DNA from: Deltaproteobacteria bacterium
GTDB taxonomy: Bacteria; SAR324; NAC60-12
Assembly (NCBI GenBank): GCA_002685535.1
Contig: NYXK01000211.1
Span: 1 to 64,000, forward strand
Length of the DNA stretch: 64,000 nt
Reading direction: 5' to 3'
The translations under genes were made by a program, and so were the position numbers. Each line of letters opens with the position of its first letter. Position 1 is the stretch's first letter. Below are positions 8,676 to 57,838 of this stretch, in pieces. Under the pieces are notes generated by a model. It was not told where the DNA came from. It worked only from the letters and a program-made list of their open reading frames with translations, and made no database searches.

Positions 8676-9536
8676 TGTTACATGCAAATATCGCGGAGTG
8701 CTGGGAAGTGGAATAAGAAAAAGAGAGTCATGGAGGGCGCTGGGAAACATTTTGGATGATCCGGCGGTCAGTGGAAGCAGAATCGCTGCTTTGAGACTAG
8801 TGAGGGGTGGCTTGCATATCTCTGTTTAGCCGAGCCATAAAATCCCCATTCTGTTTTCCCTTCCCAGGAATCCAATCGTGATACTCTTTTTTGTTTATCT
8901 CAAGGTCTGTTGTGAATGTATAACAGAGATATCCTATGCTTCATGTATGCTTTTAAGTGTTTTAGCGAGAATTCCTTCGTATAGATGCCAGACCAAGCCA
9001 TCTACATAACTGAGCCAGGAGTCATGAATCGCTTGGAGATGGGTATAATGATGATTGTTCATGTCATAGCAGGATTTCCGTTTTCCAATACCGACTATAC
9101 GGAAAACAGACTGCTCCTCTATTCTCGGTTATCCCTCTATTTCGAAAGTGATATATTGCGGACGAAAATGTCAGTCTCTTCTCGTTTCAGAAGTGATACC
9201 TACGATTGTATTGCTCCAGAGCCTATTCAACGTCGGAATGTATGCTTAGAGAAGCGCTCATATGAGCTATATCTATGTTCTCGCTATTGTTGACACAAAA
9301 GAGGATTTCAACATCGCTTGTGTCACATGATCGTGCTTACGTGAAATCGCCACCAAGATCTTCAGCCTCCTTTCGTCTACAGCCCTTCGAACACAGCTTC
9401 AGCATCCCTCCTAGATTGGTAAAGATTTATGTTTACAAAATCCTTGGAGTTTGGAATGCAAATCCCCTCTTCTAGTCGAACCCGAAGTCTTACGCGGGCC
9501 GGTTTCTGAACGTCTCCGGGACGGTCAAACAACGCA
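8676..9536. promoter_or_regulatory. Divergent region between ABZ1 and the first 2EXR gene
   Basis: About 860 bases should contain both promoters and mark the border between the housekeeping block and the 2EXR block. Open frames at 8985-9293 and 9275-9475 are short, have no recognisable domain and are not annotated as genes. Confidence 0.4.
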
Positions 9537-10643
9537 ATGGCAACAGTAGGGCCACAGCCCGACACGAGGACTAAACCTTCAGATGTCGTGATATCACTAT
9601 GCGACACGAGCCTCACGCCTGAGAACCAGACCCAGTCATCTTCTCCACCAACCAGGTCGACCCAGACGTCGTTTACTCTCTTCCCAAATCTCCCACCCGA
9701 ACTCCGTGCCCCAATATGGAAACACGCACTCACCAGCCGAATCATAAAATGGACCCGAACCAACAATCAAAACATCTTCAGCGCCCCCGAGAACCACATC
9801 CCGCTCTTCCACGTTTGCAAAGAATCACGTGAGATCGCGATGCTCTATGGAGAATATATTTCCCTGCCCTCTTCCTCCTCCTCCTCCTCCTCCTGCTCCT
9901 CCACCGCCACTAGCACAGTCTTCTTCAGCCCCATACTCGACTTCCTCCTCTTCGAACCAATCTGGACCGATCTCGTCCCCAAACCCGGTGCCAAATTCCT
10001 CCCCGACCCCCTGGACTCTCTCCCTACAGCATTGAAAGGCGTCAGGAACATCATGGTGCATTCGCACTACACCGACGAACGGAAACGGCCTACTGCTCTC
10101 TTCGAGAAATTACATGAGCTCGAACAGGTTCTCGTAGCAGCGGACGAGAAATCTATTGGTTTCCAAAACCAGAGTAAATTCATTCTCGGCACAGCTTACG
10201 ATATCAAACTGTATTATGCAGCCGATGTTCGGAAACGCTTCCCAAAATTCAAGGTCCCGTATATAGCGGTTGGATGTCTGGGCTGGACAGGATCGGAACG
10301 GAGGAAAATGCATCATGGGCATCAAGATACGCGTGAATTGCTTAGGGTGTGTGAAAATGAGGCGCAGATGAAGGAGCATCTAGCGGTGATTAGGGAGGAG
10401 GAGTGGAGGTTTATGGAGGAGTTGAAGAAGGAGAGGGGGTGGGCTGGGGGAGGGGGCAAGTTGAAGTTGAAGTTGAACTTCAAAGATGTGGACGGCAAGG
10501 GAAAAGAGAAAATGATCGAGAAGGAACAAGATGAGCAGCGATGTGGCAGTGCTGCTGTTAAGAAAGCTGATCCGCCGGTTTACTCGGGTGAGCCGGTGAA
10601 TGCGCCAGAGGATCCACCACCGTATACAGAAACGGAAGAGTAA
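9537..10643 (+). CDS. 2EXR-domain protein (copy 1)
   Basis: Intronless, 368 residues, with a clear ATG. Both family motifs are present: FPNLPPELRAPIWKHAL near residue 45-60 and CKESREIAMLYG about 40 residues later. These are hallmarks of the fungal 2EXR domain (Pfam name), whose biochemical role is unknown. Between motif two and the rest lies a serine run coded by a TCC microsatellite. The middle keeps the typical downstream segment (LDFLLFEPIW, then a V-R-N-I-M-V strand). The C-terminus is Lys/Glu-rich and ends in a proline-rich tail with two PPxY-type motifs (DPPVYSG and DPPPYTE), which elsewhere can bind WW domains. It is the longest and most intact member of the local array. Expression or function cannot be inferred. 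Confidence 0.8.
   Translation: MATVGPQPDTRTKPSDVVISLCDTSLTPENQTQSSSPPTRSTQTSFTLFPNLPPELRAPIWKHALTSRIIKWTRTNNQNIFSAPENHIPLFHVCKESREIAMLYGEYISLPSSSSSSSSCSSTATSTVFFSPILDFLLFEPIWTDLVPKPGAKFLPDPLDSLPTALKGVRNIMVHSHYTDERKRPTALFEKLHELEQVLVAADEKSIGFQNQSKFILGTAYDIKLYYAADVRKRFPKFKVPYIAVGCLGWTGSERRKMHHGHQDTRELLRVCENEAQMKEHLAVIREEEWRFMEELKKERGWAGGGGKLKLKLNFKDVDGKGKEKMIEKEQDEQRCGSAAVKKADPPVYSGEPVNAPEDPPPYTETEE
9870..9903. repeat. TCC microsatellite coding for polyserine
   Basis: About eight near-perfect TCC repeats, with one TGC interruption, encode a serine tract inside the first 2EXR protein just after its second motif. Repeat-length changes would stay in frame. Confidence 0.85.
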
Positions 10644-10968
10644 AGGCGAGTGCAAGTCGACTAGAACCCCAGCCCTATACGGTACAATAACGGCGAATTG
10701 ATCTCCACTGGTGAATTTACCCATTGCTCCAGCGACTCTCGATTCAATTGACGCAAAAGTCGCTCAACGCATCTTAATGAGAATTTTTCTCCTCTCGATA
10801 TCGCAACTGTCCGGCGTCGCGCGACACACTATCAGCGAAGCAAAGCTCGACTCTAAAAAGTCGATATCGCAGCCCTGAGCAGCGTGAACTCCAAATCAGC
10901 ACCAACAAACTAGACACGACCGTGATAGCGATGACCAGACTCGCGGTCTCAAAGACCTCAACGGCCAT

Positions 10969-11808
10969 GTGCTCTCCATTGACGAGCTGCTCACCTTCGG
11001 TCTCTTGAAAACCGAGCTCCCCGACAGCGATGTCGTTCTCTACTACCAATGGACCCCCACAGCCACCTTCCACCCCTTCAGCAAGCTCCCAGTCGAAATT
11101 CAATTGTTCATTTGGAAACTCAGCCGTCCCCGTCGCAAGATCTTCGTTCATCGAAATGGTCATATGCTTCGATGTCGAATTGCAGTTCCATCACTCCTGC
11201 AGGTCAACCGGGAAAGTCGTATTGAGATGTTGAAGCACTACACCGCGCCAGCTCACATTCCTGGTGTTCCAGATCGACGTCCTGCACTCTCTCAATACTA
11301 CTTCGACCCAACGATTGAAATCGTGGTCTTCCGGAGCTACATTCACCTCCTCAGTCTTGAAGAACACATGAATGCAGCGGAAGACATTTTTGTCGCTGAG
11401 AGCCTCGCAACACTCCAATCTTCGATAATTGGTAGTACGTGGTGGAGTGTACCGTGGAAGTTCTTCGACCCAATCTCAACCTCTACACCTGATACGCCGC
11501 CCTATTATAGACATTCCAGAAACAATCAAGTACGATTCTTCCGAACGCTCTCTTCTCTGCGAGATTTGGTGCTCGTCGGTGGGTCCTGCGCGCTGAAGTA
11601 CGATTACCAAAGAGCTCTCTGTGTAAAAAGCCTGACCGCCATGTTCAAGGAATTCCGGCATCAGGATCCAGGCCGAGGTGAGGTAGAAGTCATTGTGCTT
11701 ATGAAGTGTCATCGACCTGGCACGTTGGAATGTGAGGAGTGCTGGGTTGGCTTCAGCGAGGAAAAATTCAGGGCAAAGTTGTTGAGGGCAGTCCTTTCCG
11801 GATCTTGA
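10969..11808 (+). CDS. 2EXR-domain protein (copy 2), N-terminus unresolved
   Basis: The open frame encodes 279 residues. It holds FHPFSKLPVEIQLFIWKLSRPRRKI (given here by its ends: FSKLPVEIQ and FIWKL) and the second motif QVNRESRIEMLKHY, then YFDPTIEIVVF and a conserved-looking SLRDLVLVGG strand near the C-terminus, so the 2EXR core is complete. The frame has no ATG before the first motif: position 10969 is GTG, and the next upstream in-frame ATG (10777) is separated from the domain by two TGA stops. Either a small upstream exon is spliced in (several AG acceptors lie just before 10920) or the 5' end is damaged. The start coordinate therefore marks the open frame, not a proven initiation codon. 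It follows copy 1 in the same orientation, 325 bases downstream of its stop. Confidence 0.65.
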   Translation: MLSIDELLTFGLLKTELPDSDVVLYYQWTPTATFHPFSKLPVEIQLFIWKLSRPRRKIFVHRNGHMLRCRIAVPSLLQVNRESRIEMLKHYTAPAHIPGVPDRRPALSQYYFDPTIEIVVFRSYIHLLSLEEHMNAAEDIFVAESLATLQSSIIGSTWWSVPWKFFDPISTSTPDTPPYYRHSRNNQVRFFRTLSSLRDLVLVGGSCALKYDYQRALCVKSLTAMFKEFRHQDPGRGEVEVIVLMKCHRPGTLECEECWVGFSEEKFRAKLLRAVLSGS

Positions 11809-12867
11809 GCTATTTAGCCGAACGTCCACATTCATCCGTCTTGGGGACCGTCCAAGGCCGTTTGCGTTCCATAACTCGAGGTTATCTGATCTTTGGAGCG
11901 ATGCAGTCATTTCTCCGACCACCACACCACGGTTGCAGAGCTCCCACACACGTTGGTCATGGTTGAGTGGGATGTTCTTAATTGTGGCTGTATCTGGCAC
12001 GTTCTCGGTGGTTGGCTTTGCATTTGGGCGTCTCCTTCGCGCAGAACTCCGGCTTTGAGGCAATAAAGAGTATAAAAGTTCAATCTAGCATAATCTTTCG
12101 TGATAGGTAAGGAGCGCACTATTCACGAGCGGTGGAAACTTTCGAGACATGGGGTGCTCCGAAGGAATGCCTGTGATTATGTAGCTAGCGTAAGCTAGCT
12201 ACCACTCGTACCCAAGCGAAATTTCCTCCGACATTTGTGCCACTGCTGCATCCTTGATATGATCTCAAGCAAGACCTCATTATGGGGACTTGCGATGATA
12301 TCGCCAAACAAACATTCGCTTAACACAGTACGGTTGTATAATTCTCTGGTCCCCACAAGCGCATAACACTACCAGGCTTTCAGGAAAATTTCCAATATTT
12401 GTGGACCATCGGAAAACTGACGGGAAGTTTAGTTGCAAAAGTCATCGACTGGGTTGTGATGTTTAGCGCGACGCCTTGCCAACCTTGTCATATCTCAATT
12501 GACTGATCCCTAATGGCGAGGTAAAGCCTAGGAAAACAGCTAAGCAATGTCCAACCGTCTAGCCGCCATGCTTTCGGCAGTAGCCAGTCCATTCACAGAC
12601 AGTCGGTCTACATATGCTTCCATAGCAGCTTTAAATCCATTACGCTCCCACAAACGCCTCTACTCATCCCACCAATCAACGTTTTCCCCTCCGCCATTTT
12701 TCTCTCTACCTTGATCATCGCGACACATCAGCGAATTGTTTGCCAATCCCTGATCAAAGGAGAGTTCGCACCTACAGCATACAGACTCCACTCCAATCTT
12801 CGGCGACCGTCGCACCAGGGACTTTATCTCGACACCAGGTTCGCAACACTTTACGATTAATTCCAAT
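11809..12867. other. Intergenic region between 2EXR copies 2 and 3
   Basis: About 1.06 kb without a supportable gene. It contains a perfect short inverted repeat at 12181-12202. The open frames on both strands are short and show no domain. Confidence 0.4.
12181..12202. repeat. Perfect 9-bp inverted repeat with 4-nt loop
   Basis: GTAGCTAGC, then GTAA, then GCTAGCTAC: a perfect hairpin-capable palindrome in the spacer between two 2EXR genes. It could be a transcription-end hairpin, a small mobile-element footprint or chance; no flanking target duplication was recognised. Confidence 0.8.
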
Positions 12868-13758
12868 ATGGCCGGAATAAGCAAAAGGAAAAGGCTGCAA
12901 TTGCAACGTCAGCGCTCTTCTATACCGGGGAATATTCCCGCAGATAAGCCAAAGATCGCAACCAACGACAAGTCTCGACGTCAAGCTTCCGCCAAGACCA
13001 GATTCAATACGCTCCCTCAAGAGCTTCAAGACTACATCTTGTTCGACATCACCTACAACAAGCAACACACAATGGAACTCCGTCGAACAATTCCATATCA
13101 ATATGACAGGATGCCGATTCCAAACAGCGGTATCGATGCCTTTAGAGGAGCCGGACGGCCACTTCCTATCACTGCCTACATATGTCATGCAAGCCGAGAG
13201 GAAATGTTTCGTCATCTGAAGCTTTTGATTCCAGGAAATCCACAGTGCGGCTACTGGGAGCCCGAAGTAGACAGACTATTATTGACAAACGACACGCAAG
13301 CTGACCTCATGGCCTTTGCCGACGCTTCTGGCTTGGAGGTTCTCGACAAGGTTCAACACCTTACACTTTATCACATGGACTTTGTTCCACACCTAGTGAA
13401 CCCTTGCTGCTCCCGCCACAATCGCCGACAAAAGGCAGAACTGAAGCCCCTTCAGCAGATATCAGCGCATGAGCGCCTCAATTTGCCTCCCATCGAAGCC
13501 TTCAGAGCTTTGAAGACTTTGAGAATAGTACCGTCACGAGACGGTATGGATCAACCCTGGTTACTGTCAGAGGAGGGAGTGAAGAAGTGCAAAGAGGCCT
13601 TTCTTGAGTACTTTTCGCTCTTGCAAAAGAAGGTGGATCCTACCCATAATATTCCAGTGGTTGAGATGAAGATGATCCCTTCGTATAATGGCGTACCGCG
13701 GTATTCTGACGTTAGTCGAGAAGAACGCATTCGGTATCCGTATCCTTCGGCACGTTAG
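12868..13758 (+). CDS. Divergent 2EXR-like protein (copy 3)
   Basis: Intronless, 296 residues, clean ATG. A basic N-terminus (KRKRLQLQRQR) precedes FNTLPQELQDYILFDI, which resembles the first 2EXR motif but also an F-box start (LPxEL-x-x-x-I). The second motif appears as CHASREEMFRHLKLL, keeping the SRE...H pattern. A patch with CCSRHNRRQK lies in the middle. The usual IW of motif one is replaced by IL, so this is either a diverged 2EXR protein or a related F-box-like fungal protein. The frame is intact and long, unlike several neighbours, so the gene is likely functional. It sits in the same orientation as copies 1, 2 and 4. Confidence 0.6.
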   Translation: MAGISKRKRLQLQRQRSSIPGNIPADKPKIATNDKSRRQASAKTRFNTLPQELQDYILFDITYNKQHTMELRRTIPYQYDRMPIPNSGIDAFRGAGRPLPITAYICHASREEMFRHLKLLIPGNPQCGYWEPEVDRLLLTNDTQADLMAFADASGLEVLDKVQHLTLYHMDFVPHLVNPCCSRHNRRQKAELKPLQQISAHERLNLPPIEAFRALKTLRIVPSRDGMDQPWLLSEEGVKKCKEAFLEYFSLLQKKVDPTHNIPVVEMKMIPSYNGVPRYSDVSREERIRYPYPSAR

Positions 13759-14762
13759 TGATTTAAAACAATGCATGACTGGGTTTATTTACTAGGGTGC
13801 AAAGCAGAGACCAATGTGCCAATTACATGCGCAATGGTGGAGCATAGAAATTAATGAATGCAATAGGAACGCTGAGTGGTGTCCATTCTTGAAGATCATG
13901 CTGTAATTGTCTTAGTATAGTTTTAGGGCCGAGACTTAGATTAGGTTCTTCAATAGAAATCCCTCATTCACTACTGACTCCATCTTGTGATGCGAGCAGT
14001 AGAGATATCTCCCCGATTTAGTACATACTGAACTGGATGTTAAAGCTAAGCGAGTGCCTCAATCGCAGACAGAACAGAGCTTCTGAAAGCCTTTAATCAC
14101 ACCTTCTTTATCCACAAAAGACACCTTTGGAGGCACAGAATGCCACGGAGCATTCGTTACTGTATTCAGAAATCATATCCATACGTATCGAATTGCCCTC
14201 AGAGTCCACCGAGTTTTGGTCACGTTAGCCGGAAAATCAGAATCGAATTTCTGCCCAATCAAAGATTGGATCGTCTTAAGGTTAGGTAGCCACCAATATG
14301 TACTACCCAGCAACCATGACAGCGCGGAGAAAATGCAAACAACAAGTGTTGTGTCGAGCAATGTGGGTAGTCAAGAGCCGACCGAGATGAAGGTGAAGAT
14401 ATTCGCCTGTCAAGAAAGGTAACTCTAATCTGCAACTTCACGAGGAGTCCAACACTTGTGAACGAATGACGATGTGCACTTTGACAAAAAACTATACCCG
14501 GAAGCTGCCGTTGCAATCGGGCAATTTGATCTGTGGGGCCCAAATAAGCGACCCAAGAAACAACCCAACTACTCCCTCACTTACGGCACGCAAACTTCTA
14601 GTGCAAGCTAGACTTACCTTAGATGCCACACCCACAAGCTCTGATATACTGCACTATCAAAGTCTCCTCTTTTCAGTACAATCCCTCAATTTTCGGAATG
14701 AAATGCTTGGTCTTATTTTGTGTACAGTAAGCATTGCTTTACGAACTAAAGCTAACCACAAG
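13759..14762. other. Intergenic region upstream of the decayed 2EXR copy 4
   Basis: About 1 kb with no supportable gene. The frame of copy 4 is open back to an ATG at 14466, so part of this region could be its 5' coding sequence, but the added residues show no domain. Confidence 0.35.
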
Positions 14763-15579
14763 ATGTCGAGAACAAGTTTGACATCTTCAGCTGAGGCACA
14801 CCTTATTCCAATTTCTGATGTCACTGACGACATTATTTCATCACCATCCGACCAAGAGGGGCCCGAAGGCTCATCCGAAGGACAGGGAGCAGACTCATCA
14901 CACAAGGAAGCCAGTGATAGTCTTGGCTCTGGGCCCATGGCCGCTAAATCTCCCACCGACTTCAGTCAGCTGCCCCTGGAGCGACAACGACAGATTTGGA
15001 AACATTGCCTACCTCCCGGGAAAATCACTTCTCTCTTTTACTACTATACCATCATTCGACTTGGTACACCAGCTCCTATAGGACTCCGGATTAATCGCGA
15101 AAGTCGGCCGGAAACACTTCGACACTACAAAGTTTTGCTACCAACCACACACTGACAGCCTTGAATACTGGGACAGCACTGTCGACACTATACAGCACTG
15201 AGACATGTCAACTTACATGGCTTCTACCTACCTCGAGATGACTTTGACCGTTTGTCCTACTCCAGCGATAATGAAGGCAGAATTGGCGACGTGTCGATTC
15301 GTGGAGTTTCTTTACCCGCCAACTGTCCGAGGGCTGCAGATGTTTATCAGCATGACGAAGAGCTGGACGAAGAAAGGATTGAGCACATCTAGCGTCGAGA
15401 CCGGCCCTAACCTTCGATTGCATTGTCCGAACATGAAGATGCTCAGACTTTGGCCTGATTGTGGGCCCGATGAGGTAAGAGATACACATCAGGGGCTCAT
15501 CGACTTGCTTAGCGCCTGTCAAGAGGAACCTCCACATAGATGGGCTATCACAGACGAAGGGAATTTAATAGAGGTCTAG
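14763..15579 (+). pseudogene. Decayed 2EXR gene (copy 4)
   Basis: The start region (Ser/Glu-rich, then FSQLPLERQRQIWKHCLPPG and LRINRESRPETLRHYKVLL) gives both 2EXR motifs. The frame then hits a stop at about 15152. Shifting by one base around 15139 continues as YQPHTDSLEYWDSTVDTI, matching the position where the family normally has its F/Y-D-P-x-x-D-T segment, then meets a TGA near 15199, and the same frame stays open to 15579. A third frame also has plausible coding sequence in 15210-15390. One frameshift plus at least one stop within the expected domain length argues for a pseudogene. No canonical intron removes both defects. It remains possible that a truncated product of about 130 residues is made. 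Confidence 0.6.
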
Positions 15580-16334
15580 ATAATGGATTCAACACGGAGC
15601 CGGACCTGGATTTGGTACTTGTCGGTTGCCAATTAGCTTCTACTTGAAAGTGAAGCTATGAGACGTGTAATGCTTTTCTCTGGTATGATGGTAAGGAACG
15701 AGTCCAGATAAGACACAGACTGTAAGATTGTCCGTGAAATGCCGGCTTCAATCTCTGACATAAACATGGACTTCACTTTACACATGTCTTGAATACTGCC
15801 CTACTTATCTTGTTGTCGGTCGTTCGTTCTTTGATATTTGTCACTTCAAATTCACATTTTTGTGTTTAGCCTCTGGGCGGCATTTGTATGCCCGTAAAGG
15901 AGCTGCACGTGCCTTGGAGGACAGAGTGTAGTCACCTGCACGATGCCGAGACATCGTGATACTTGTCACGCAACCTTCTGCTTTTCTCTCGTTACGTACG
16001 CAGAGGGCCCTCAAATTGCGGGGTTCTCTGAAGAAAGCTGGCCGGCCGCTGTTGGGGCGCCACACAATGCTGGAGATTCCAGAGAGTAAAGAATGAATTC
16101 ATGGCAGAGAATTAAGATTCCTGATTGCTTCTCGAGCTGGCTGGCCGGTCGTGCTTGCCTTTTTTGTTTGCTTTCACTAGCGTTGTCTCTAAGCGAGACA
16201 GGATATCTACCAGGCAGATGCTCCCAGCTTGTCCCCGAAACTTCACCAACGACTAAATCAGTACTTCAACATCACCCAAAAGAACCCGACCTCACAGCAA
16301 TTCTCTCACCACAGACCTCACCACGCAATTCAAC
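15580..16334. promoter_or_regulatory. Upstream region of the MYND gene
   Basis: About 750 bases between the decayed 2EXR copy 4 and the MYND gene. The last 250 bases are CA/TC-rich like a fungal promoter and leader. No gene seen. Confidence 0.35.
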
Positions 16335-17149
16335 ATGGGCCGCTGGGGTGAACGATTCTTCGAGGGTGACAACGACCTGGACGAGGCCAGCATGATGTCT
16401 GCAGACGCTGGCATCGAGCTCTACAATTACGAAATCGACGAGCGAGAGAGCGAGGACTTCTCCTTCTCCGGCAAGGGCCTCGAAGCTACCAGAGACCATC
16501 TCAACAGTGGCGTCCTGAGCCGCCTCTTCAACAAGTACGCTACCAATAAGTCTTTCGCTGATGGCAGTATGAGCTGCAAGGAACTTCGATTGGTCCTCCT
16601 AGGTAAAGTGGCATCTGGTCTACCCGAGATCCACAGGTAGACTAACATTGTGTGCTCGAAGCTGTCTTGGCCATGCGCCTTGGTGCCACAATCGAGCCAG
16701 TCCACATGGATCTGTTGCGCGACTCCTACACCAAGATCGACGTTTCTCCCAAATACTCCTTCGTCCTGGCAGACTCTGGTTTCCGTGCTCCAATGAAGGA
16801 ACAGTTCGAGATTTCTCTGGCCAAGTACAAGAACGACGGTACACCTTATAACTTCGATGCCATCCGCTGCGAGAATATGCCGTGCTCCAAGGAGAACAAT
16901 GAATTGGTCGAGGGAAAGACATTGAAGAAGTGTGGAAAATGCTTGGTCAGTATATTCCGTCTTTGATAGCAGATATGAGCTTCGAATGGATTACCACTGA
17001 CACTTCTGTAGGAGGTATTCTACTGTAGCAAGGAGTGCCAGACCCACGACTGGACCAAGCACAAGAAGAATTGCATCACCCCCGAGAAGCGTGCCGAGCA
17101 GGAGAAAAACCGCAACGCAGGAAGAGGCTTCGTTTCGATGAATGTTTGA
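16335..17149 (+). CDS. MYND-type zinc-finger protein
   Basis: Three exons (16335-16602, 16662-16945, 17012-17149) give 229 residues; introns are GTAAAG...AAG and GTCAGT...TAG. The first ~150 residues are acidic and helical without a recognised domain (starts MGRWGERFFEGDNDLDEA). The C-terminal ~50 residues form a MYND zinc finger: CENMPC, KKCGKCLEVFYCSKECQ, then HDWTKHKKNC, i.e. the C-x4-C / C-x2-C / C-x3-C / H-x3-C pattern split across the last intron. MYND fingers bind proline-rich peptides and mediate protein-protein contacts. It interrupts the run of 2EXR genes and, unlike many of them, is fully intact with good splice sites, so it is likely expressed. No specific ortholog name can be given. 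Confidence 0.82.
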
Positions 17150-17881
17150 GATCCGAAAGTGTTTCGCAGGAGCACGATGATGGTGGCTTTACGATGGGAT
17201 TACGACATTTGCTGCAGATGACATCGGAGACTTTGACTTGATAAGGACTTCTTGCGATTTGCATTTTGCTTCAACAGGGAAGAATGTATCCACAAATCCG
17301 CACCTTTGCGTCCTATGATTCGGTGATGAGCTAGTGATAGACGTACTTCTTACGAGGAGCCTGACAGTGTGTTAGAGGAGCTGACAAGCTGCATTTCAAT
17401 GTCTCGGGAGTCTTTTGAGACTTAGTATTGTGAAATCCTCGTCGCGGCAGTTCCATACCGTAGTGAAAGGCTGATGCCCTTTCCTTGGCTAAGGAACGGA
17501 ACAACTTTATCATGTGTATCGCGACGGAGGGCTTTACAACTAGGCTATTCTTAATGGGATCAAGCAGATATCTAGTCCTGCTGGGCTTCTTGAATCGTTT
17601 CTTGGAACTGGCTGAGGTATCCGAGACGAATGGAGTTGAGATCAGTATGGTACAAAGGTGGGGAGCTTCTACTCGTTATACGCATCGTATGGCTTCGACA
17701 TATTCAGCAAGATGCTAAAGCATCCAAGCTCACTGTACCATTTCATGCATTAATATGAGAGACCTTGGATACTTTTGTATATGTTTATTGTATAGCCATT
17801 GTGCAACTGCTCTTTTTCGGTGCAAGACTTCCTTCAATCACCAGCATGAGCGCTACTGTCCTCTGTCTCGCTCCGGGATTG
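17150..17881. other. Convergent intergenic region, MYND gene / 2EXR copy 5
   Basis: About 730 bases between convergent ends. Short frames at 17485-17718 and 17755-18039 overlap the 3' part of copy 5 or lack domains. Nothing else recognised. Confidence 0.4.
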
Positions 17882-18727
17882 TCACTGCCACCAAATATCT
17901 TTACAGACCCTTCGGTATGAAACATGCTTCTCCAAGAAGGAGCTCTCGACATCCTCCCAATCCTCCACTGAGAATAGATGTACTGAGTAGCTTGGCTCCA
18001 AGAAGGTTGTCTTTCCTATGTTTGCAAACCCTTTCGTGACATTCACAATGCTTGGGGCTAGGTCTGGAACACTATCGCCACAGCTCAATTTAATGACCAA
18101 AGTGGTAATTTTGTTGGTCGTAGTGTGGTAGGATTTCCGCAAGTCTTTGGTTGCCCATCCTAGGCCACTGTCCCACCAGAAGATCTAATAACGAGTCGGA
18201 CTGAAGCAAATTGGTCGGTGTGGCATCCATCGCTGTAATTTCTTGGCTTCGGATGGGAAGTCCTGGGTACGGAAGATCTCGTAGTGACGGAGAGTCTCTC
18301 GCCGGCTTTCCTGATTGACTTGAAGTGTGACGGAGAATAGCGCTCCGCCCGCATTTCTTTCTTCAAGGAGTTCGTACACCTCATTCTTGATGTTCATTAC
18401 TCGCCCTTCAGGTAATACTGCCTTCCAGAACATGAGTCGCAGTTCTTCCGGCAGTTTCGAAAACAGTGTAAACTTTTTGGGAAGGAGCCACTGTTCGACA
18501 AAGAGTTCTTCGTTGGGGTCAGGGAATTCAAAGGTGAGCAGGGCAAGCGTTGCTACAACCTCTTCAATCTCTTGTAGAGTGCCTTTGGATCTCGTGAGGT
18601 ATCTGTAACGTCATGTCAGTTGTTACTTTTGTGACATTGAGGTGATCAATCCGGCTTACTTGTGGGTCATGGCGGTCGTTGCACTGGGGCTTCGCCTTTG
18701 CTGATGGGAATGAGCATTGGAGGACAT
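17882..18727 (-). pseudogene. 2EXR gene (copy 5) interrupted by one in-frame TAG
   Basis: Exon 1 (18660-18727, from an ATG starting MSSNAHSHQQ) ends CAC AA and is joined through a GTAAGC...ACAG intron to exon 2 at 18602, reading K-YLTRSKGTLQEIEE. The domain follows: FSKLPEELRLMFWKAVLPEG and QVNQESRRETLRHYEIF. A TAG at 18185-18187 stops the frame in the middle of the expected domain, but the same frame continues for 101 more codons (IFWWDSGLGW, ending at 17882) with coding-like composition. So one substitution separates this from an intact ~260-residue protein. A CAG-to-TAG (C-to-T) change would explain it. It is a head-to-head inverted paralog of copy 6 with the same intron position. Alternatives: stop-codon readthrough or a sequencing error. 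Confidence 0.7.
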
Positions 18728-19244
18728 CAAAGCGGGTACGAGGCGCTCCGCTTGTCGTGCTCCAGGGTGGTACGATACAATACGCGAGAGAAGCTGAGAT
18801 AGAGAGAGCGGAACGGATTTCGAGGACTGGGTTGCAAAGACTTGATTCCAAGGTCCTAAGCTCGACTCGAAGCTTATGATCTTAAAATCATCTCTGGACA
18901 ACTTGGAAGGGTCCAGAGGCCCGTATTCACTTCTTAGGGGGTGGTCTCTGAGAGGAGATAATCTCTAGGAGTCAACAACGCAACCACGAGCAGCACGTGA
19001 CGGGCGAAAGATACTTTAGCCTAGTACGTGCTAAGTGGACTTCGTTGAAATACGCGCCTTCCTCATGCGCTTTCGGATCATGTAACCTGGACCATCGAAA
19101 TGCAAGCAATATCTTCATCCTCTTCCCTGCCTGGATATCCTTCAATAACCTGCGATACAAGCAACGACATTCCTCCGCGACATTACACAGGAAAGCATTG
19201 CACATCTACTCAATCGCGAAAACTGCAGACATTTTATCCAGCTC
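18728..19244. promoter_or_regulatory. Divergent spacer between inverted 2EXR paralogs 5 and 6
   Basis: About 520 bases between two head-to-head paralogous 2EXR genes, expected to carry both promoters. The open frame of copy 5 extends upstream to 18901, so its start could lie inside this spacer. Confidence 0.4.
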
Positions 19245-19863
19245 ATGGAAATGGCTCCCGGCAAATTCGCAGACACGAAGAGAGGCAAAAAGAAGGTCAA
19301 AGGTACCTCGAACGAACACAAGTAAGGACCCTAAACCCGCAAGCGCCTAGATAGAAGGATCACCGCAATGATACAGACACCTGACCCGGTCCAAAGGCTC
19401 CATGAAGGAAATTGAGGAAGCGACCGAGGCTCTCGAGCTATTTACCTGCGAGCTTGTCGATCCGAACGAAGAGTTGTATCTGCAGGAGCACAGTCTGAAG
19501 CATATGCCCGGATCCAGCAGACTCTCAACGGAGCTCAGACTCATGATTTGGAATGCTACCTTCCCTACTGGACGTTTGCTACCAATCAACCTCGAACCCT
19601 TCTTCCTACTTCTGCGCCCCCCAAAGAAGAATGGCTGTACGCTGCCAGTATCACTCCACATCAACGATGAAAGTCGCCAAGATACTAAGCGACATTACTA
19701 TGTCTTACTACCCGACGAAACACCTCCCATGGACCCAGAATTCGCACCCAAGAACATGGTTCCAAGCTGTTTGCGCAAAACTTTGTATATTGACATGGAA
19801 AGGGACTTTGTGTACCAGGAGGAAGGCAATTTCAGCTGGGTAAACAAGACTTTGACCAGTTAG
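19245..19863 (+). CDS. Short 2EXR-domain protein (copy 6), probably C-terminally truncated
   Basis: Exon 1 (19245-19321) encodes MEMAPGKFADTKRGKKKVKG and a few residues more, ending CAC AA before GTAAGG. Exon 2 (19377-19863) resumes as K-HLTRSKGSMKEIEEATEALELF. Total 187 residues. The first motif reads SRLSTELRLMIWNATFPTG and the second HINDESRQDTKRHYYVLL. Intron position, phase and the LTRSKG start are shared with copy 5, proving common descent. The protein ends soon after the second motif, where other members continue for 80-150 residues; no extension in the following 100 bases was found in any frame. It may be a functional short form or a truncated relic. Confidence 0.65.
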
Positions 19864-20505
19864 AAGTGACACCTACAGGGAAGGATCCGGATGATGCATA
19901 GACTCCAGTACCGGTTACTGAAATTTGTGTACTGTAACAGACTGCATCTGCTCGCTTGGCTGTGTAGGCAATCTAGGTAGGAATTCACGGGTGCTGGAGT
20001 GTAGTCCTTGGCGCGCTAGCCTCAGCATCGAAGAACCCCACAGCTTGCTCGTCTTCCTTTCCAGCATCATCGCAAAATCTGGTTAGGCCAAGAAGAAAAG
20101 CACAAGGGATCGCTGTAAGTCTTTAGTACCCATTACCTTCAGAAAGTATATCGCTGAACGCAGATCCAGCTCAGCTCGCTCTCACAATCCGTTCTCAACC
20201 ATCTAAACCTCCTCATACACGAACCTGATCTCTCAATTATCGCGACCGAAGACGACATTCTCGAATATCACAGTATTTTTAAGCCTCTACTTACTACACA
20301 TGCACACACCGGGACATTGAAGTTGTTTTCTTCTTGGGGTATTCTTTCTCAGTTCTGAACTGTTTTGTTGACTAACTGGTTCTGCACCAATAGGAACTCA
20401 AGATGTCTCCGAAGATTACCCCCGAGCCGAAAACCCCCTTTCAACTTCACTACCAACCGTCAATCCCAACTCTACCAACAAGTCCGTGTGTCACCGATTA
20501 TCAAT
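19864..20505. other. Intergenic region between 2EXR copies 6 and 7
   Basis: About 640 bases. The last part has T/C-rich leader-like sequence and an ATG at 20403 whose frame ends at a TAG (20520-20522). No gene supported. Confidence 0.35.
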
Positions 20506-21125
20506 ATGGCCTTGATAACTAGTCTGGTTGTCGGTGTCGCAGTCTTCCTGATGGCCGTCCTTTGGCACCAGGTCTTTCAGCAAGGCCGTGCGTCGTGACA
20601 GTCAACCTCCCTCAAATAGTCACTTCTAGCGCAAACTTGGTTTTGTCGCTCCTCTTATACCTGCCCGACCTTAACCAAGACCTCTTCATCCAATCTTGCT
20701 ACAATTCCACCGATTTCCGACTTTTTGCCTTCCTTCCACGAGAAGTCCGCTTCATGATTTGGCGCGCAGCCATGCCCCGAGGCCGCCGCTTTCCACTCAC
20801 AAGCTTCCGTGATAATCTGCCAGGATTTCTTGGTCCTCGTCCCCCAGTCCCCTACAACGTCTGTCAAGAAAGCCGCCAAGAAGTTCTACGACACTTCATC
20901 TTCTTGAGATGGACAGTCCACTGGGTCCAGAGATTCCAAAACCCTACCGTCATCACACTCAGCCACCCCTTACAAACAATGCAAGTTCTCTTCGACCCGA
21001 TCACCGATATCGTAACTTCAAGCTCATGGACTATTACGACCCGCATCGGCTTATTAACCGAGGTAATGCCAGTAGACTTTGTCTTTCTAGCTTTCGCGCT
21101 GTTACGTTGTCGCGCGGTTACGTGA
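20506..21125 (+). CDS. 2EXR-domain protein (copy 7), 5' and 3' structure uncertain
   Basis: The domain frame (open from 20562, where the first codon is TTG) contains FAFLPREVRFMIWRAAMPRG and NVCQESRQEVLRHFIFL, then VLFDPITDIVTSSSW, so it is a 2EXR member. It lacks its own ATG. An ATG at 20506 in another frame encodes a strongly hydrophobic segment, MALITSLVVGVAVFLMAVLW, that would make a membrane anchor. It can be joined to the domain frame only by removing a 32-nt piece (GTGCGT...AATAG), shorter than usual introns. The alternative is the ATG at 20403 in the domain frame, blocked by a TAG at 20520. The C-terminus is also short compared with copies 1 and 2. It may be a recently damaged gene. 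Confidence 0.5.
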
Positions 21126-21339
21126 TATTATTGAACCTTTTCCTAAAAGCATGATTGCCAAAGTAGAACACAGTTCCATGTTAAGATTGAAGCGGGAGAG
21201 ATTGCCGCGCTAGACCGTTCCTAAAACATTATTGCGCCAGCACCAGGTACAAGAAGCTCAGTACATAGATATTCCCTCCAAGAAAAAGAAATAAGAATAC
21301 CCAGAGCTCATTCATAAGGAGCAATTTGAGCCGTCACTG

Positions 21340-23469
21340 TCAACAGAATATGAAGGACTGGATGTCACAAGTTCCTGATTCCGTTAGAGCAAGCGCTTCT
21401 CCGTCCATAAAGCCCTGCACGTACGCTTCACCCACGACCATGAATTTGTCACCTACTGGCCTAATAACAAGAGGCGTACTGCAACCAAAAATTATAGCGA
21501 TTTTATCGCCTACCTTCATTTCTTTTGTCTGATCAGTTTCGTATAAGTTGTCTGGGCCCCACCCAAAATACCCATTCCTCGTCAGCATGAATCTCCGTTG
21601 CTGCACAGCCCTCTGGCAACTACAGTAAACTTCCATGTACGTGAGCTCCTCGGCATCTTGCGGGATGGCGTTGCTGAAGTAGCTCCCCAGTGGCTCTTCA
21701 CCAAGCATGAAGGAGTCATGTGTAGAACGCCATCCTTCCCATTTAAAATAATATCCGCCTTGTGCCATTAGCCAGTCCCATCCTTTTGCTTGAAATTGTG
21801 GTAAGGCTGCCCAGAACATCGATGGCAGACTCAAAAGTGCGGCGTGACGCTGCTGGACACGTTCGCCTTTGGCGACAACAGAGAGTAGTAAAGTATGCCA
21901 GAGAGCCGAGCCTGTTGCCTCAAAGTCCCCATATGAACTTCTCCAAGAAGGGCATGGAGCGATACGATGCTTGTGCCATGTGAAGTACCCAGCCTCAGGA
22001 GCACCAAGTCCAACCACTTCGTCGAATATGAATCCTTCACACGAGAATAGCCTCCAGTCGTCTAGGAATGTATAAGATGCTTGTACACTGCCATGTGCGC
22101 AGTAAATAGCGTCAGGGTCTGGCTCTGGATCCGAGGGCTCCCACGGCGGCGCAACAAGATTATATTCCGGGCGAGAGAACCGCACCCGGCCGTCCCAAGT
22201 CCAATCAGCTGCCCACGAAGGTGCTCCAACTGGACCCCAAGGATTTCCATGGCGAAGTGGCTCTAACTTCTTCGTGTGAGCAATGAATACCCGGGCAACG
22301 GCAGCGAACAGCTTTGGTGGTTCAAACTCGTAGGCTATCATAATATCTGCTGCAATAGCTGGGTCCATCATTCCTATTAATGCAAACACTTTGTCGCGCA
22401 CATCGCGGCAGTCAGCGGAATTTGCAATGTCCAGCAGACGCCGGAAGCCGATACGGTTTGTCCCTTCCCCATCAAAACGACTCAGTGGGCGTAGATCTAT
22501 GTGAACAAGGTGAATGCTGTAAGTTTGCCATACCAAATTGTCTCGGAAGCCCCTGGAGGTAAGTTCTTTTCGCAGCTCTCGGTCTTTGAGAGTCCAGTTA
22601 GATCCGTGATAGAGAACCCCAATTCCATTACAAAACGTACTCCAGTCGATAACTTGGTTCCCCTGGCGAAGGATAGTGGAGGAAGCCCCCATGATGAGCT
22701 CTTGGATGACCCAAAGTCGAGACCAGTACTCTTGTTTCATCAGCCCGTTCAAGGCGCAGAAATAAATCCCCTTAGACGGCTCTCCTTCTTCGATCTGCAA
22801 CCTCTCAAGATCACGTTGATCCCCCTGTAGAGAGGCGAGAATCCGGAGGAAACGAAAGGCGTGGTTGATATCAGCATCTGGGCGACTCCATCCGATCCAT
22901 GCGATCACAAACCATGCTCCGCTGTAGATGTCTCGCATCTTCTGCACTTGATGAGCCCTTTCATGGTCGTCGGCTTGATTGATACATATGGCATCTATCC
23001 AGAGCCTGAAGCGATCACCGAAAGTATTGTCCCCTGCCAGCGCCCGCAAAGCACTTTCGAGATTTGCAGTGACCGATACTGTCTCGCCGCTCAAAATTAT
23101 GTCCTTGCGAATCGACTCATCGCCCCAAACATACGACAAAGCAGCGAAATCGCCCCAATTAAAACGGTGGCGATGTGGAGCCGGGGTACTTCCGCAGGAC
23201 AGATCCACCCCTTTAGGCTGAGGATCTGGTCGAGCAGCACCAACCCATCGTTCTTTTACCTGGCGAGGAGTTTGCACATACGTGCTAGTTGAATGCATAA
23301 ATGAACCATACTCTGGCTTGAAGTCTTTCAACGACACCTTCTCAAGTGTGCATCGTAACGGGTACCCTGGCAGGCAAAGCCCAATACTGACTACCCTTAT
23401 CTCGTCTGCAGCCTCGTCCAGGCGTGAATAAAGCCTGCATTTCGTTGCAAGCGTGATGTTGTTCTGCAT
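21340..23469 (-). CDS. HET-domain protein (heterokaryon-incompatibility type), 709 residues
   Basis: A single exon with a clear ATG at 23469. After ~105 residues the HET domain starts with FAALSYVWGDESI. It continues with RLWIDAICINQADDHERAHQVQKM, here split as LWIDAICINQ and HQVQKMRDIY, then AWIGW, and later EYWSRLWVIQEL. These are the three conserved blocks of HET (fungal TIR-related domain) proteins. The remaining ~450 residues include VRDKVFALIGM, typical of this subclass, and end in a segment around GDKIAIIFGCSTPLVIRP, common at the C-terminus of HET proteins. Such proteins can trigger cell death after fusion of unlike individuals; no partner is known here. It diverges from the 2EXR copy 8 over ~490 bases, the only 2EXR/HET promoter pair in the window. 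No frame damage is seen. Confidence 0.9.
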   Translation of the reverse strand: MQNNITLATKCRLYSRLDEAADEIRVVSIGLCLPGYPLRCTLEKVSLKDFKPEYGSFMHSTSTYVQTPRQVKERWVGAARPDPQPKGVDLSCGSTPAPHRHRFNWGDFAALSYVWGDESIRKDIILSGETVSVTANLESALRALAGDNTFGDRFRLWIDAICINQADDHERAHQVQKMRDIYSGAWFVIAWIGWSRPDADINHAFRFLRILASLQGDQRDLERLQIEEGEPSKGIYFCALNGLMKQEYWSRLWVIQELIMGASSTILRQGNQVIDWSTFCNGIGVLYHGSNWTLKDRELRKELTSRGFRDNLVWQTYSIHLVHIDLRPLSRFDGEGTNRIGFRRLLDIANSADCRDVRDKVFALIGMMDPAIAADIMIAYEFEPPKLFAAVARVFIAHTKKLEPLRHGNPWGPVGAPSWAADWTWDGRVRFSRPEYNLVAPPWEPSDPEPDPDAIYCAHGSVQASYTFLDDWRLFSCEGFIFDEVVGLGAPEAGYFTWHKHRIAPCPSWRSSYGDFEATGSALWHTLLLSVVAKGERVQQRHAALLSLPSMFWAALPQFQAKGWDWLMAQGGYYFKWEGWRSTHDSFMLGEEPLGSYFSNAIPQDAEELTYMEVYCSCQRAVQQRRFMLTRNGYFGWGPDNLYETDQTKEMKVGDKIAIIFGCSTPLVIRPVGDKFMVVGEAYVQGFMDGEALALTESGTCDIQSFIFC

Positions 23470-23959
23470 TCTGATCGAGTCTCCTCTCCCGGATGCTAGC
23501 TGTGAGCAGACGCCGACAAATTCAAAGAATATACGAAAGCGTGGTTCCTCGAAAACTCATGGCTAATGTTTCGGGTTGATCTTCCTCACTAGATAAGAGA
23601 AAAAAGAAGAGATGGGGAGTCAGCACCACTGGTGCATCTAGCGAATCAACGAGTAAGCTGCGCACCGGCTGCGATACAAGCCACACACGCCACGGCTGGT
23701 ACTTTGAAACAATTATGTACATGCAATGCCGGAATCGCGAGTCGCCAGTAACTACAATGATATTGTTTCGATTCTCTTTCAGGTTTGAATAATGTCTAAG
23801 ACAGACTATCAATTCGGTAGTCTTATTTCCATCCTTCTATATAAGCATACCTACATATCCTTTTCCCGCTTCCCTTTCCTTCTTGTCAAAGCAAAGTCAT
23901 CTCGACAAAGACAGACAAAGAACATGATTCTCCACTATTATCTTTTGACTACAATCAGG
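23470..23959. promoter_or_regulatory. Divergent spacer HET gene / 2EXR copy 8
   Basis: About 490 bases between divergent starts, AT- and TC-rich with TATA-like stretches near 23840. It should contain both promoters. Confidence 0.4.
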
Positions 23960-24738
23960 ATGTCAGACACCAGAAATAGCGATGCGGCCCCACCGATCGA
24001 GGAGCAAGTCATTGCCCTCAACCTTCAGCTGCTCAACCACGAGCTGCCTGGTGTTGGACAGTACATTGTTGACCAGAACCTTGGTCGCCCACTCGAGAAA
24101 TTTACATGTTTTGGCAAGCTACCATATGAGCTGAGACATATGATCTGGGATTTCAAGCTCCCTAGAAGACAGGTTGTAGACTTCAAACCATTTTTCAAGG
24201 GTATGTGGGATGACAAATCTCAACCTAAACTCCCGTTGGTCTGTTTGTAAACCACGAAAGTCGGACGCACTTCCTGAAGAAAAATTCTATCTTCTTTCAA
24301 TATCGCTTCCCTGATGTGGTGAGTTTGAATACCTTGCCCAACCCTTACAGCGTATTCTGCTTGGATCCAAAAGTAGATCTAGTCCGGATCGACCCTTGCC
24401 AAGCTTTCGGCGATTGCTCGGATATTTAAAGCTTTTCAGGCAAAAGCCCGAGTGTCTGGCAAAAGTCGAGCATCGAGGTTCCTCGCACCAGCTGGGACGA
24501 TCTCCAGGAGTTATGCGAAGGGATCATGGTAGGGGAAGATGATAGCAATGATTTATTCACCTACTTCACAGGCTTGAGAACAATACATCTCACGGAGGAT
24601 CCATATTGGGGTGACAAGTTCCGACGCACATACGGTGAGAAAGCATATGATGCTCTACTCAAACTCGTCAAGCACGAAAGAAAGGGAGACCTAGCCAAGA
24701 AACCAATACCGGCTATTGTCATACACAAATATCGCTGA
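23960..24738 (+). pseudogene. Frameshifted 2EXR gene (copy 8)
   Basis: Starts MSDTRNSDAAPPIEEQVIAL and has motif one as FGKLPYELRHMIWDFKLPRR. The frame ends at TAA near 24248, but one base over it continues exactly at motif two, FVNHESRTHFLKKN, then CLDPKVDLVRIDP. A TAA at 24427-24429 follows, after which the same frame stays open to 24738 (SWDDLQELCEG, GLRTIHLTEDPYW). The second break can be avoided by a 67-nt intron (GTAGAT...TTTTCAG, phase 0), but that would delete the conserved LDPKVD-following segment. No intron repairs the first break without losing motif two. So one frameshift and possibly one stop interrupt an otherwise complete gene. Confidence 0.6.
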
Positions 24739-24774
24739 AACAAGGTTCGTTCTGACCATAGTTTTCTTTACGAC

Positions 24775-25085
24775 AGGGCCATGCCATATCCATGGAACGG
24801 AAAGTAGCCAACAATCCTTCAGCCGCCTCAAGCCAGCGAGGCTTCAAGCCCTTGAAACATAGTCACAACTAACTCCTAAAGAGCTTGAGGCTATAGACCA
24901 TGCTGGCATGACTTTTGATGAGGCCCATTTCATGATGAATTCATTGTCAGTCAAGTCCCAGCCAAGTAAGTCATTTATTTGTTTTTAATCTCATTCTTCC
25001 TGATGTCTATCCCACCTGCCTAGACGTACCCTGTAATCAGACACAAGATAAGTGCTCCAATTCTTTGCAACTTCATGTCGGTTAA
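24775..25085 (+). pseudogene. Relic of a small protein gene with a single in-frame TAG
   Basis: One frame reads FSRLKPARLQALET, then TAG (24860-24862), then SQLTPKELEAIDHAGMTFDEAHF. It reaches a good donor (GTAAGT at 24966) and can be spliced to an acceptor TAG at 25023 to end NQTQDKCSNSL...* at 25085. The LTPKELEAIDHAGMTFDEA segment has the look of a conserved small fungal protein I have seen but cannot name with certainty. No in-frame ATG lies upstream, and the TAG is one C-to-T change from CAG. It lies directly behind 2EXR copy 8. Could also be a chance open frame. Confidence 0.35.
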
Positions 25086-25959
25086 TACATACAAAATTTC
25101 TTTACCTTGATTCACACTATATTTTCAACCTAACCCGAACTCTTTTTGATTGATTATTGTTTTCCCCTTCACGACAATGCATTTGAAGTTTAGTATCATC
25201 CTTCATGAGAGAGAGTTTGCTCTGCTCGGAACTTCTTGTCTTTCTTTAGTAAGAATAGGGAACCTTTTCAAGGCATCAGACATAAGTGACGACCATTACT
25301 GTATCCCGAGACGCATCACCAGCACCCCTGTCACGAGACGAATCTATAGTTTTAGAATTACAATTTATATCACTATATATATTGAGCTATTATTGATATG
25401 CCACGTTCTTTAACTGTTTCCCCTTAAGGAAACCACTCAACAATAAGGAAAAGAGTACTGTTAATCATATTGTCGATTGATTTGATTACGCTACCAATCG
25501 GCGTTTCCGCTATCCCTCTCTTGTTTAACAGCGACTATCAGCATATTTTCGATTTCGAAGCACTTGAGGGAAGGTCTTATCACGACATAACATGGCTCTA
25601 AATTGCAAAGATACTTAGAGAGGAAATGGTCTGGGAGTTACGCCGTTGCCGATGAGATGGTTGGTATATTTCACTGCTTAGTAATGTACATTAGCCGAGG
25701 TGGAATTTCACTATGTTCACGGCCTGTTGGCTATATATTACTTAGCCACAACTCCCGGGGCCCAATCATGTGTGTAGCATAGAAGAGAGGGCTCTTGTCC
25801 GACCTATCCGAAAGTGGGATGGTTCACAGAAAACACAACATCAGCCTATAAATCAACATCCTTACTAGGTCTATGATGTAAGAACTACGTCTCCTAACAA
25901 ACTGCATTCATTTCCATCGCATCTCATTGTTATCTTTGCATCATTATCTATATTATAGA
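25086..25959. other. AT-rich intergenic region upstream of the PrpF-like gene
   Basis: About 870 bases, AT-rich, with TATA-like elements (for example near 25730 and 25940). No gene recognised. Confidence 0.4.
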
Positions 25960-56882: not shown

Positions 56883-57608
56883 TCACAAACAAATATCGAG
56901 CTCTCTGCGACATTCTTCCGGCATCGAGCCCTCCTCCCAGGAGCATGGACACCGCTGGAATTGGATCTCAGGTGGTGTCCAGTCTTTCCATCTGTCCTTT
57001 TGCTGGAACCTTTCCATTTCCTTTGTCTTCAAATCCGCCAGACCCTTCTCCATCACGACCCGCAGTGCTTGCGATCGATCTTCGACTCCAGCTTGCTTGG
57101 AAATTGGCAGTTTTTGTATCGTCTCCCGATGGACGATGATCAAAATCCGCCGCACCGAAGGGGTGTACCATCCCAGCAGACGTGAACAAGCCCAGTGACT
57201 GGCCTTGAACTTCTCAGGATCCTCTTCCCATTCCCACTCAACGTTATACAAAGAGCTCATGTGCAAATTTTGGGTCTTGAATTTGAGTAGTGTTGAAATC
57301 ATGCAGTGGGCCTGCAGTCTCCAGGATCTGGCAATATAGTCGACGGAGAAGTCAATCCAGCCCCAATTACATCTGTGTGGCAAATCAAAGCAGTCTCTAT
57401 TGGTGTTGAATCTTCTATGCTTTGGAACAAATTCGAAATGCTCCAAAGCTATGCTTCTGGCTTCAGCATTGATGAACACAGCGCTCGGGATTGGCTTGGC
57501 CATGCAACAATGCAAAAGGCGGGGGCGAGGGAGTGTCCAAAGCCATATCTTTCGTCGCAATTCTAGCGGCAATCGACGGAAAGGGTGAAACTCTTTCAAG
57601 TCACTCAT
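56883..57608 (-). CDS. 2EXR-domain protein (copy 9, outlying)
   Basis: Intronless, 241 residues with an ATG at 57608 starting MSDLKEFHPFRRLPLELRRK. Motif one reads FRRLPLELRRKIWLWTLPRPR, given here by its core LPLELRRKIW. Motif two is changed to INAEARSIALEHFEF (EAR in place of ESR). Later segments WIDFSVDYIARSW and VRRILIIVHRE fit the family layout. The C-terminal third is Lys/Trp-rich. It lies ~33 kb from the main 2EXR array, so it probably arose independently or by an older duplication. The frame is intact. Its function, like the family's, is unknown. Confidence 0.75.
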   Translation of the reverse strand: MSDLKEFHPFRRLPLELRRKIWLWTLPRPRLLHCCMAKPIPSAVFINAEARSIALEHFEFVPKHRRFNTNRDCFDLPHRCNWGWIDFSVDYIARSWRLQAHCMISTLLKFKTQNLHMSSLYNVEWEWEEDPEKFKASHWACSRLLGWYTPSVRRILIIVHRETIQKLPISKQAGVEDRSQALRVVMEKGLADLKTKEMERFQQKDRWKDWTPPEIQFQRCPCSWEEGSMPEECRRELDICL

Positions 57609-57838
57609 AGCGATTTCCGAACAAGGCGAAGTTCTTGAAGGATTGTATGAGGGGAAAATAATGTTGGTAAAGGATTCCCAGGGTTGAGGAATGAGCTTTC
57701 AGTGCGATGCTGAGTCAGGCAGAAGTTAGGCGAAAGTCTGCCGACTTTAATTTACAGGTCACTGAACGAAATGTCAAACAAAGAATGCTCCAGACCGGTC
57801 GCCAAAACGTAAAGAATTGGCAGTAGACCGTCCAAAAT

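What the first reader, a model, noticed from the sequence alone, without database searches (positions are those of the whole stretch)
9537..24738. Run of eight 2EXR-domain genes in 15 kb, with a mix of intact and decayed copies
Eight loci in this stretch carry the paired motifs (LP-x-E...IW and SRE/ESR...H): 9537, 10969, 12868, 14763, the 18 kb pair, 20506 and 23960. Three are clearly broken and two more are truncated or have no start. This is direct evidence of local duplication and loss in a family whose function is unknown. Position beside a HET gene suggests a fast-evolving recognition or conflict locus; that part is inference.
Basis: partly seen in the sequence, partly recalled or inferred. 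Interest (0 to 1): 0.72.

Follow-up and report, generated by a model that had tools for sequence, protein, structure and literature searches.

The report
Old, half-decayed fungal 2EXR gene array
A 15-kb stretch of fungal DNA (found inside a bacterial genome bin) really does hold eight copies of a poorly understood fungal gene family, five of them readable and three broken, but this is one ordinary cluster among many in that fungus, the duplications are old, and the neighbouring self-recognition gene is no closer than chance predicts.

Summary
The observation largely holds. Pfam 2EXR (PF20150) matches seven of the eight loci above its curated cut-off; the eighth (12754-13758) scores 20.4 bits against a cut-off of 24.8, but its own relatives support it. 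A ninth copy, not listed, lies at 56883-57698(-). The "intact/decayed" call needs revision. Three copies that lack an in-frame start (18.2, 19.4, 20.5 kb) each have a 55-57-bp phase-2 intron near the 5' end that supplies an ATG (class seen in 2 of 698 control ORFs); 10.9 kb has the same layout with a poor donor. So five of eight can be read through and three (14.4, 18.2, 23.8 kb) are broken. The window is fungal DNA in a bacterial bin with 76 above-cut-off 2EXR matches, strongly clustered, many of them relics. Five array copies plus one from another contig form a supported clade (96/90); 9.5 and 12.8 kb belong elsewhere; 10.9 kb is ambiguous. Divergence is deep (best pair 44%, synonymous sites saturated), with purifying selection where measurable: old birth-and-death, not recent expansion. 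HET adjacency is not above chance (P about 0.3). Function remains unproven; I favour an F-box-like adaptor, supported only indirectly through DUF7730.

The parts
9537..10643 (+). 2EXR copy 1, intact single-exon reading frame (about 368 aa); not of the local clade, nearest C7/C80 copies
   Evidence: PF20150 59.2 bits; tree 96/81 with C7_6.2p and C80_9.6p
10777..11808 (+). 2EXR copy 2; body open to stop (10888-11808). Candidate first exon 10777-10859 and phase-2 intron 10860-10913 (54 bp) with poor donor GTCGAT
   Evidence: PF20150 45.4 bits; best BLASTP to the 18.2 kb copy, 38% over 108 aa; lax intron scan
12868..13758 (+). 2EXR-like copy 3, intact, divergent, below Pfam's cut-off; not of the local clade
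   Evidence: 20.4 bits, cut-off 24.8; local HMM 34.8 bits
14763..15579 (+). 2EXR copy 4, broken: TGA at about 15154, reading continues only by frame changes into 15202-15579
   Evidence: PF20150 32.2 bits; three-frame view; clade member
17882..18727 (-). 2EXR copy 5: exon 1 18727-18660, intron 18659-18603 (57 bp, phase 2), exon 2 from 18602; single in-frame TAG at 18187-18185, about 100 codons open beyond it
   Evidence: PF20150 48.7 bits
19245..19863 (+). 2EXR copy 6: exon 1 19245-19321, intron 19322-19376 (55 bp, phase 2), exon 2 19377-19863; complete domain, short C-terminus; closest relative of copy 5
   Evidence: PF20150 37 bits; 44% over 119 aa to copy 5
20403..21125 (+). 2EXR copy 7: exon 1 20403-20485, intron 20486-20542 (57 bp, phase 2), exon 2 20543-21125; short C-terminus
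   Evidence: PF20150 35.6 bits; intron scan
21340..23556 (-). HET-domain gene (738 aa ORF), open; neighbour, not shown to belong functionally
   Evidence: PF06985 E 1.2e-28; adjacency test not significant
23960..24738 (+). 2EXR copy 8, broken: frameshift near 24240, TAA at 24427
   Evidence: PF20150 35 bits; three-frame view; clade with C75_150.6m 98/87
56883..57698 (-). ninth 2EXR copy, outside the array, open 271-aa frame
   Evidence: PF20150 46.2 bits

Best explanation
This is one of many arrays of 2EXR paralogues in a filamentous fungus whose contigs sit in a bacterial bin. Shown: eight paralogues lie between conserved housekeeping genes; at least five fall in one local clade; several have a short phase-2 5' intron; three are broken; and the closest pairs diverged long ago, with purifying selection where it can be measured. 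This is slow birth-and-death of a large family. Inferred mechanism: each protein is an intracellular adaptor. The conserved FxxFxxLPxELRxxIW helix and the ESR helix form an F-box-like docking module, probably for Skp1 or a similar partner, and the variable loop and divergent C-terminus recognise a target. Duplication then supplies new target specificities, and spare copies decay.
For: Pfam and genome-wide counts; clustering of copies: 47 of 78 have a neighbour within 5 kb against 21 at random, maximum 39 in 1000 draws; tree and label test; shared intron class against 2 of 698 controls; purifying selection: pN 0.39 against pS 0.85 for the 18.2/19.4 kb pair, dN/dS about 0.12 and 0.18 in two other pairs. 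F-box-like module: 2EXR against DUF7730 profile P 7e-10; DUF7730 against an F-box profile P 2.7e-4 over 45 columns, with the loop falling as an insert; 0 of 200 shuffles as good. 24 of 36 copies show weak DUF7730 matches.
Against: Direct 2EXR against F-box comparison is weak (P 0.0056, 18 columns, probability 6.6%), no F-box family rings for any of 36 copies, no PDB relative. Half of the F-box profile rows were recalled from memory. AlphaFold models are poor (pLDDT 40 and 57). DPCfam (PMC9621593) reports that the cluster behind PF20150 extends over a region that AlphaFold predicts as mostly unstructured. No target or partner is known.
Confidence: 0.45

Rival explanations
1. Genomic drift: the array is a set of mostly dispensable spare copies; the family has a few functional members elsewhere and this locus contributes little.
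For: Three of eight broken; relics common genome-wide; only 28 of 78 copies have the simplest intact single-ORF form, though introns and locus edges lower that count. Plant F-box genes show a similar pattern (PMC3030570).
Against: Purifying selection in the pairs measured; shared intron class and N-terminal extension among local copies.
Confidence: 0.3
2. Conflict or nonself-recognition locus: 2EXR proteins and the neighbouring HET protein form part of one fast-evolving recognition system.
For: An open HET gene lies between copies 7 and 8; both families are numerous in this bin.
Against: No HET-2EXR association within contigs (P 0.27-0.52); no sign of positive selection, with dN/dS 0.12-0.18 (pair averages only).
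Confidence: 0.15
3. Assembly or sequence artefact: the breaks are base-calling errors.
For: The assembly is a mixed metagenome bin.
Against: 6 substitutions and 0 indels in a 14.9-kb overlap of two contigs; long ORFs nearby are open.
Confidence: 0.04
4. RIP or transposon capture shaped the array.
For: Duplicated sequences in many filamentous ascomycetes are targets of RIP (general knowledge).
Against: Composite RIP index negative throughout; no repeats of 24 bp or more, direct or inverted, in 8800-25800.
Confidence: 0.02

Closest known systems
2EXR family (Pfam PF20150)
   Same: Domain matches above cut-off for seven of eight copies; both ExR motifs (ELR and ESR) in most copies
   Different: Nothing beyond the array arrangement and the 5' intron; copy 3 is divergent and falls below the cut-off
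DUF7730 (Pfam PF24864)
   Same: Related N-terminal module: profile P 7e-10; one protein elsewhere in the bin passes both cut-offs
   Different: DUF7730 has a KQIYxEAxxxLY helix in place of ESR; window copies do not reach its cut-off
F-box (PF00646)
   Same: LPxELxxxI helix; aligns across the F-box through DUF7730
   Different: Long insert between the helices; no direct family match; Skp1 binding untested
Plant F-box gene birth-and-death (PMC3030570)
   Same: Large family, many pseudogenes, purifying selection on conserved members
   Different: Different kingdom; function of 2EXR unproven; no between-species comparison here

Membership tests
2EXR (PF20150) | Whole-protein score over 24.8 bits | tested here: met
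   Seven of eight copies 32-59 bits; copy 3 at 20.4 does not meet it
2EXR (PF20150) | Two conserved ExR motifs (LPxELR and ESR) | tested here: met
   Alignments A1 and A2; copy 8 only across its frameshift; some copies vary (EIQ, ERQ, EVR, EAR, ASR)
F-box (PF00646) | Significant match to the F-box family | tested here: not met
   No F-box family at E up to 1 for 36 copies; profile comparison weak
F-box (PF00646) | Three-helix fold binding Skp1 | tested here: inconclusive
   Models with pLDDT 40 and 57; binding not testable with these tools
DUF7730 (PF24864) | Score over 27 bits | tested here: not met
   Window copies weak only, E 0.017-0.08
HET-type recognition locus | Linkage to HET genes above chance | tested here: not met
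   5 of 18 HETs within 5 kb against 3.8 expected, P 0.31
HET-type recognition locus | Polymorphism or incompatibility phenotype | not testable with these tools
   No second isolate found

The most novel reading that the evidence does not exclude
2EXR and DUF7730 together form an unrecognised, loop-inserted F-box-like superfamily of fungal ubiquitin-ligase adaptors, expanded in arrays much as F-box genes are in plants.
Probability: 0.3. Interest if true: 0.65.

Novelty: new member of a known kind. Interest (0 to 1): 0.33.

Why it matters
2EXR is a family of unknown function that is very numerous in at least this fungus. If it is a loop-inserted F-box-like adaptor family, many unannotated fungal proteins gain a testable role. 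Even if not, the array shows that short 5' introns can make 2EXR copies look dead when they are not, which matters for counting genes and pseudogenes in this family.

Tried and rejected
18S rRNA search failed twice, so the fungus is not identified. PDB profile searches gave no relatives. Skp1 search in the bin found nothing, and its controls did not ring either, so it says nothing. RIP indices negative. Codon-bias gene finding was too weak to use. Six-copy, eight-copy and nine-copy single-clade tests were not rejected (p 0.39, 0.13, 0.41), so the tree alone does not exclude a single origin. My local HMM drifted to about six DUF7730-like copies, so 78 is a slight overcount.

Full report
What the window is. 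The window is C210:1-64000 of a 7.28-Mb bin. Same-genus relatives are 1.3-3.3 Mb and none of 97 relatives carries 2EXR. Window genes include a proteasome subunit, Vps55, PABA synthase, PrpF, Sec16, a P4-type flippase and HET, so this is fungal DNA binned with a bacterium. The fungus was not identified.

Observation. Seven of the eight named loci pass Pfam's 2EXR cut-off; the eighth (12754-13758) does not, but is a divergent relative. A ninth copy lies at 56883-57698(-). The array lies between the PABA synthase gene (5910-8825) and PrpF (from 25882).

Intact or decayed. Copies at 9.5 and 12.8 kb are open from an ATG. In those at 18.2, 19.4 and 20.5 kb the frame that carries the domain has no convincing start upstream (18.2 and 20.5 kb have no in-frame ATG at all before the domain; in 19.4 kb the sequence shared with 18.2 kb extends upstream of the first ATG). 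Each has exactly one strict candidate intron, 57, 55 and 57 bp long, all in phase 2, with first exons of 22-27 aa. For 18.2 and 19.4 kb the junction reads K|YLTRSKG and K|HLTRSKG. Only 2 of 698 control ORFs show this class. 10.9 kb fits the same plan with a non-consensus donor. Broken copies: 14.4 kb, 18.2 kb (one TAG) and 23.8 kb (frameshift and TAA). Sequence error is unlikely: 6 SNPs and 0 indels in a 14.9-kb contig overlap.

Genome context. The bin holds 76 above-cut-off matches. With a local HMM, 78 copies lie on 24 contigs totalling 2.34 Mb; 47 have a neighbour within 5 kb against 21 at random. Relics with stops or frameshifts occur in other arrays too.

Descent. Best BLASTP hits are on the same contig for 40 of 71 copies. 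On the tree, five array copies (14.4, 18.2, 19.4, 20.5, 23.8 kb) plus C75_150.6m form a clade (96/90); 9.5 kb groups with C7/C80 copies; 12.8 kb lies elsewhere; 10.9 kb is unstable on the domain alone but matches 18.2 kb over the domain and N-terminal extension. That extension is found only in window copies among the loci searched; leave-one-out detection works for 18.2 and 19.4 kb but not for the others. Median end branches exceed one change per site and synonymous sites are saturated, so the duplications are old. The measurable pairs, both outside the window, give dN/dS of 0.12 and 0.18.

HET. The HET gene at 21340-23556 is open. Across contigs HETs are no nearer to 2EXR copies than random positions, so adjacency here carries little weight.

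Mechanism. 2EXR has no solved relative. Profiles link it to DUF7730 strongly and, through DUF7730, to the F-box, with the loop as an insert between the LPxEL helix and the next helix. I take an F-box-like adaptor as the most likely mechanism, but membership in F-box is not met by direct tests. DPCfam (PMC9621593) notes only that the two ExR motifs might matter.

Verdict. A real but fairly ordinary array in a known, uncharacterised family. The birth-and-death claim stands in a slower form; the HET inference does not.

Noticed in passing
whole window; G000: The window is fungal DNA in a bacterial genome bin of 7.28 Mb, more than twice the size of its same-genus relatives; much of the bin is probably fungal contamination.
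   Followed up: partly
G000:C58:76000-90923 and C166:44000-58923 (L084, L085): At least 14.9 kb shared in opposite orientation at 99.96% with 6 substitutions and no indel: overlapping contigs or two haplotypes of the fungus.
   Followed up: partly
L042:7142-8059 (C113_87.1p): A protein that passes the curated cut-offs of both 2EXR and DUF7730, linking the two Pfam families.
   Followed up: yes
16257-16966: Two adjoining open frames in the array without a Pfam hit; the C-terminal cysteines look like the start of a MYND finger (my reading, untested).
   Followed up: no
50963-52960: A second open HET gene (PF06985 E 1e-25) in the window, about 4 kb from the ninth 2EXR copy.
   Followed up: no
L058:10139-10459 and L056:8739-8996 (C120_70.0p, C126_93.7p): The closest 2EXR pair in the bin (78% over 82 aa) lies on different contigs and has dN/dS near 0.12; the domain of one carries two TAG codons.
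   Followed up: partly
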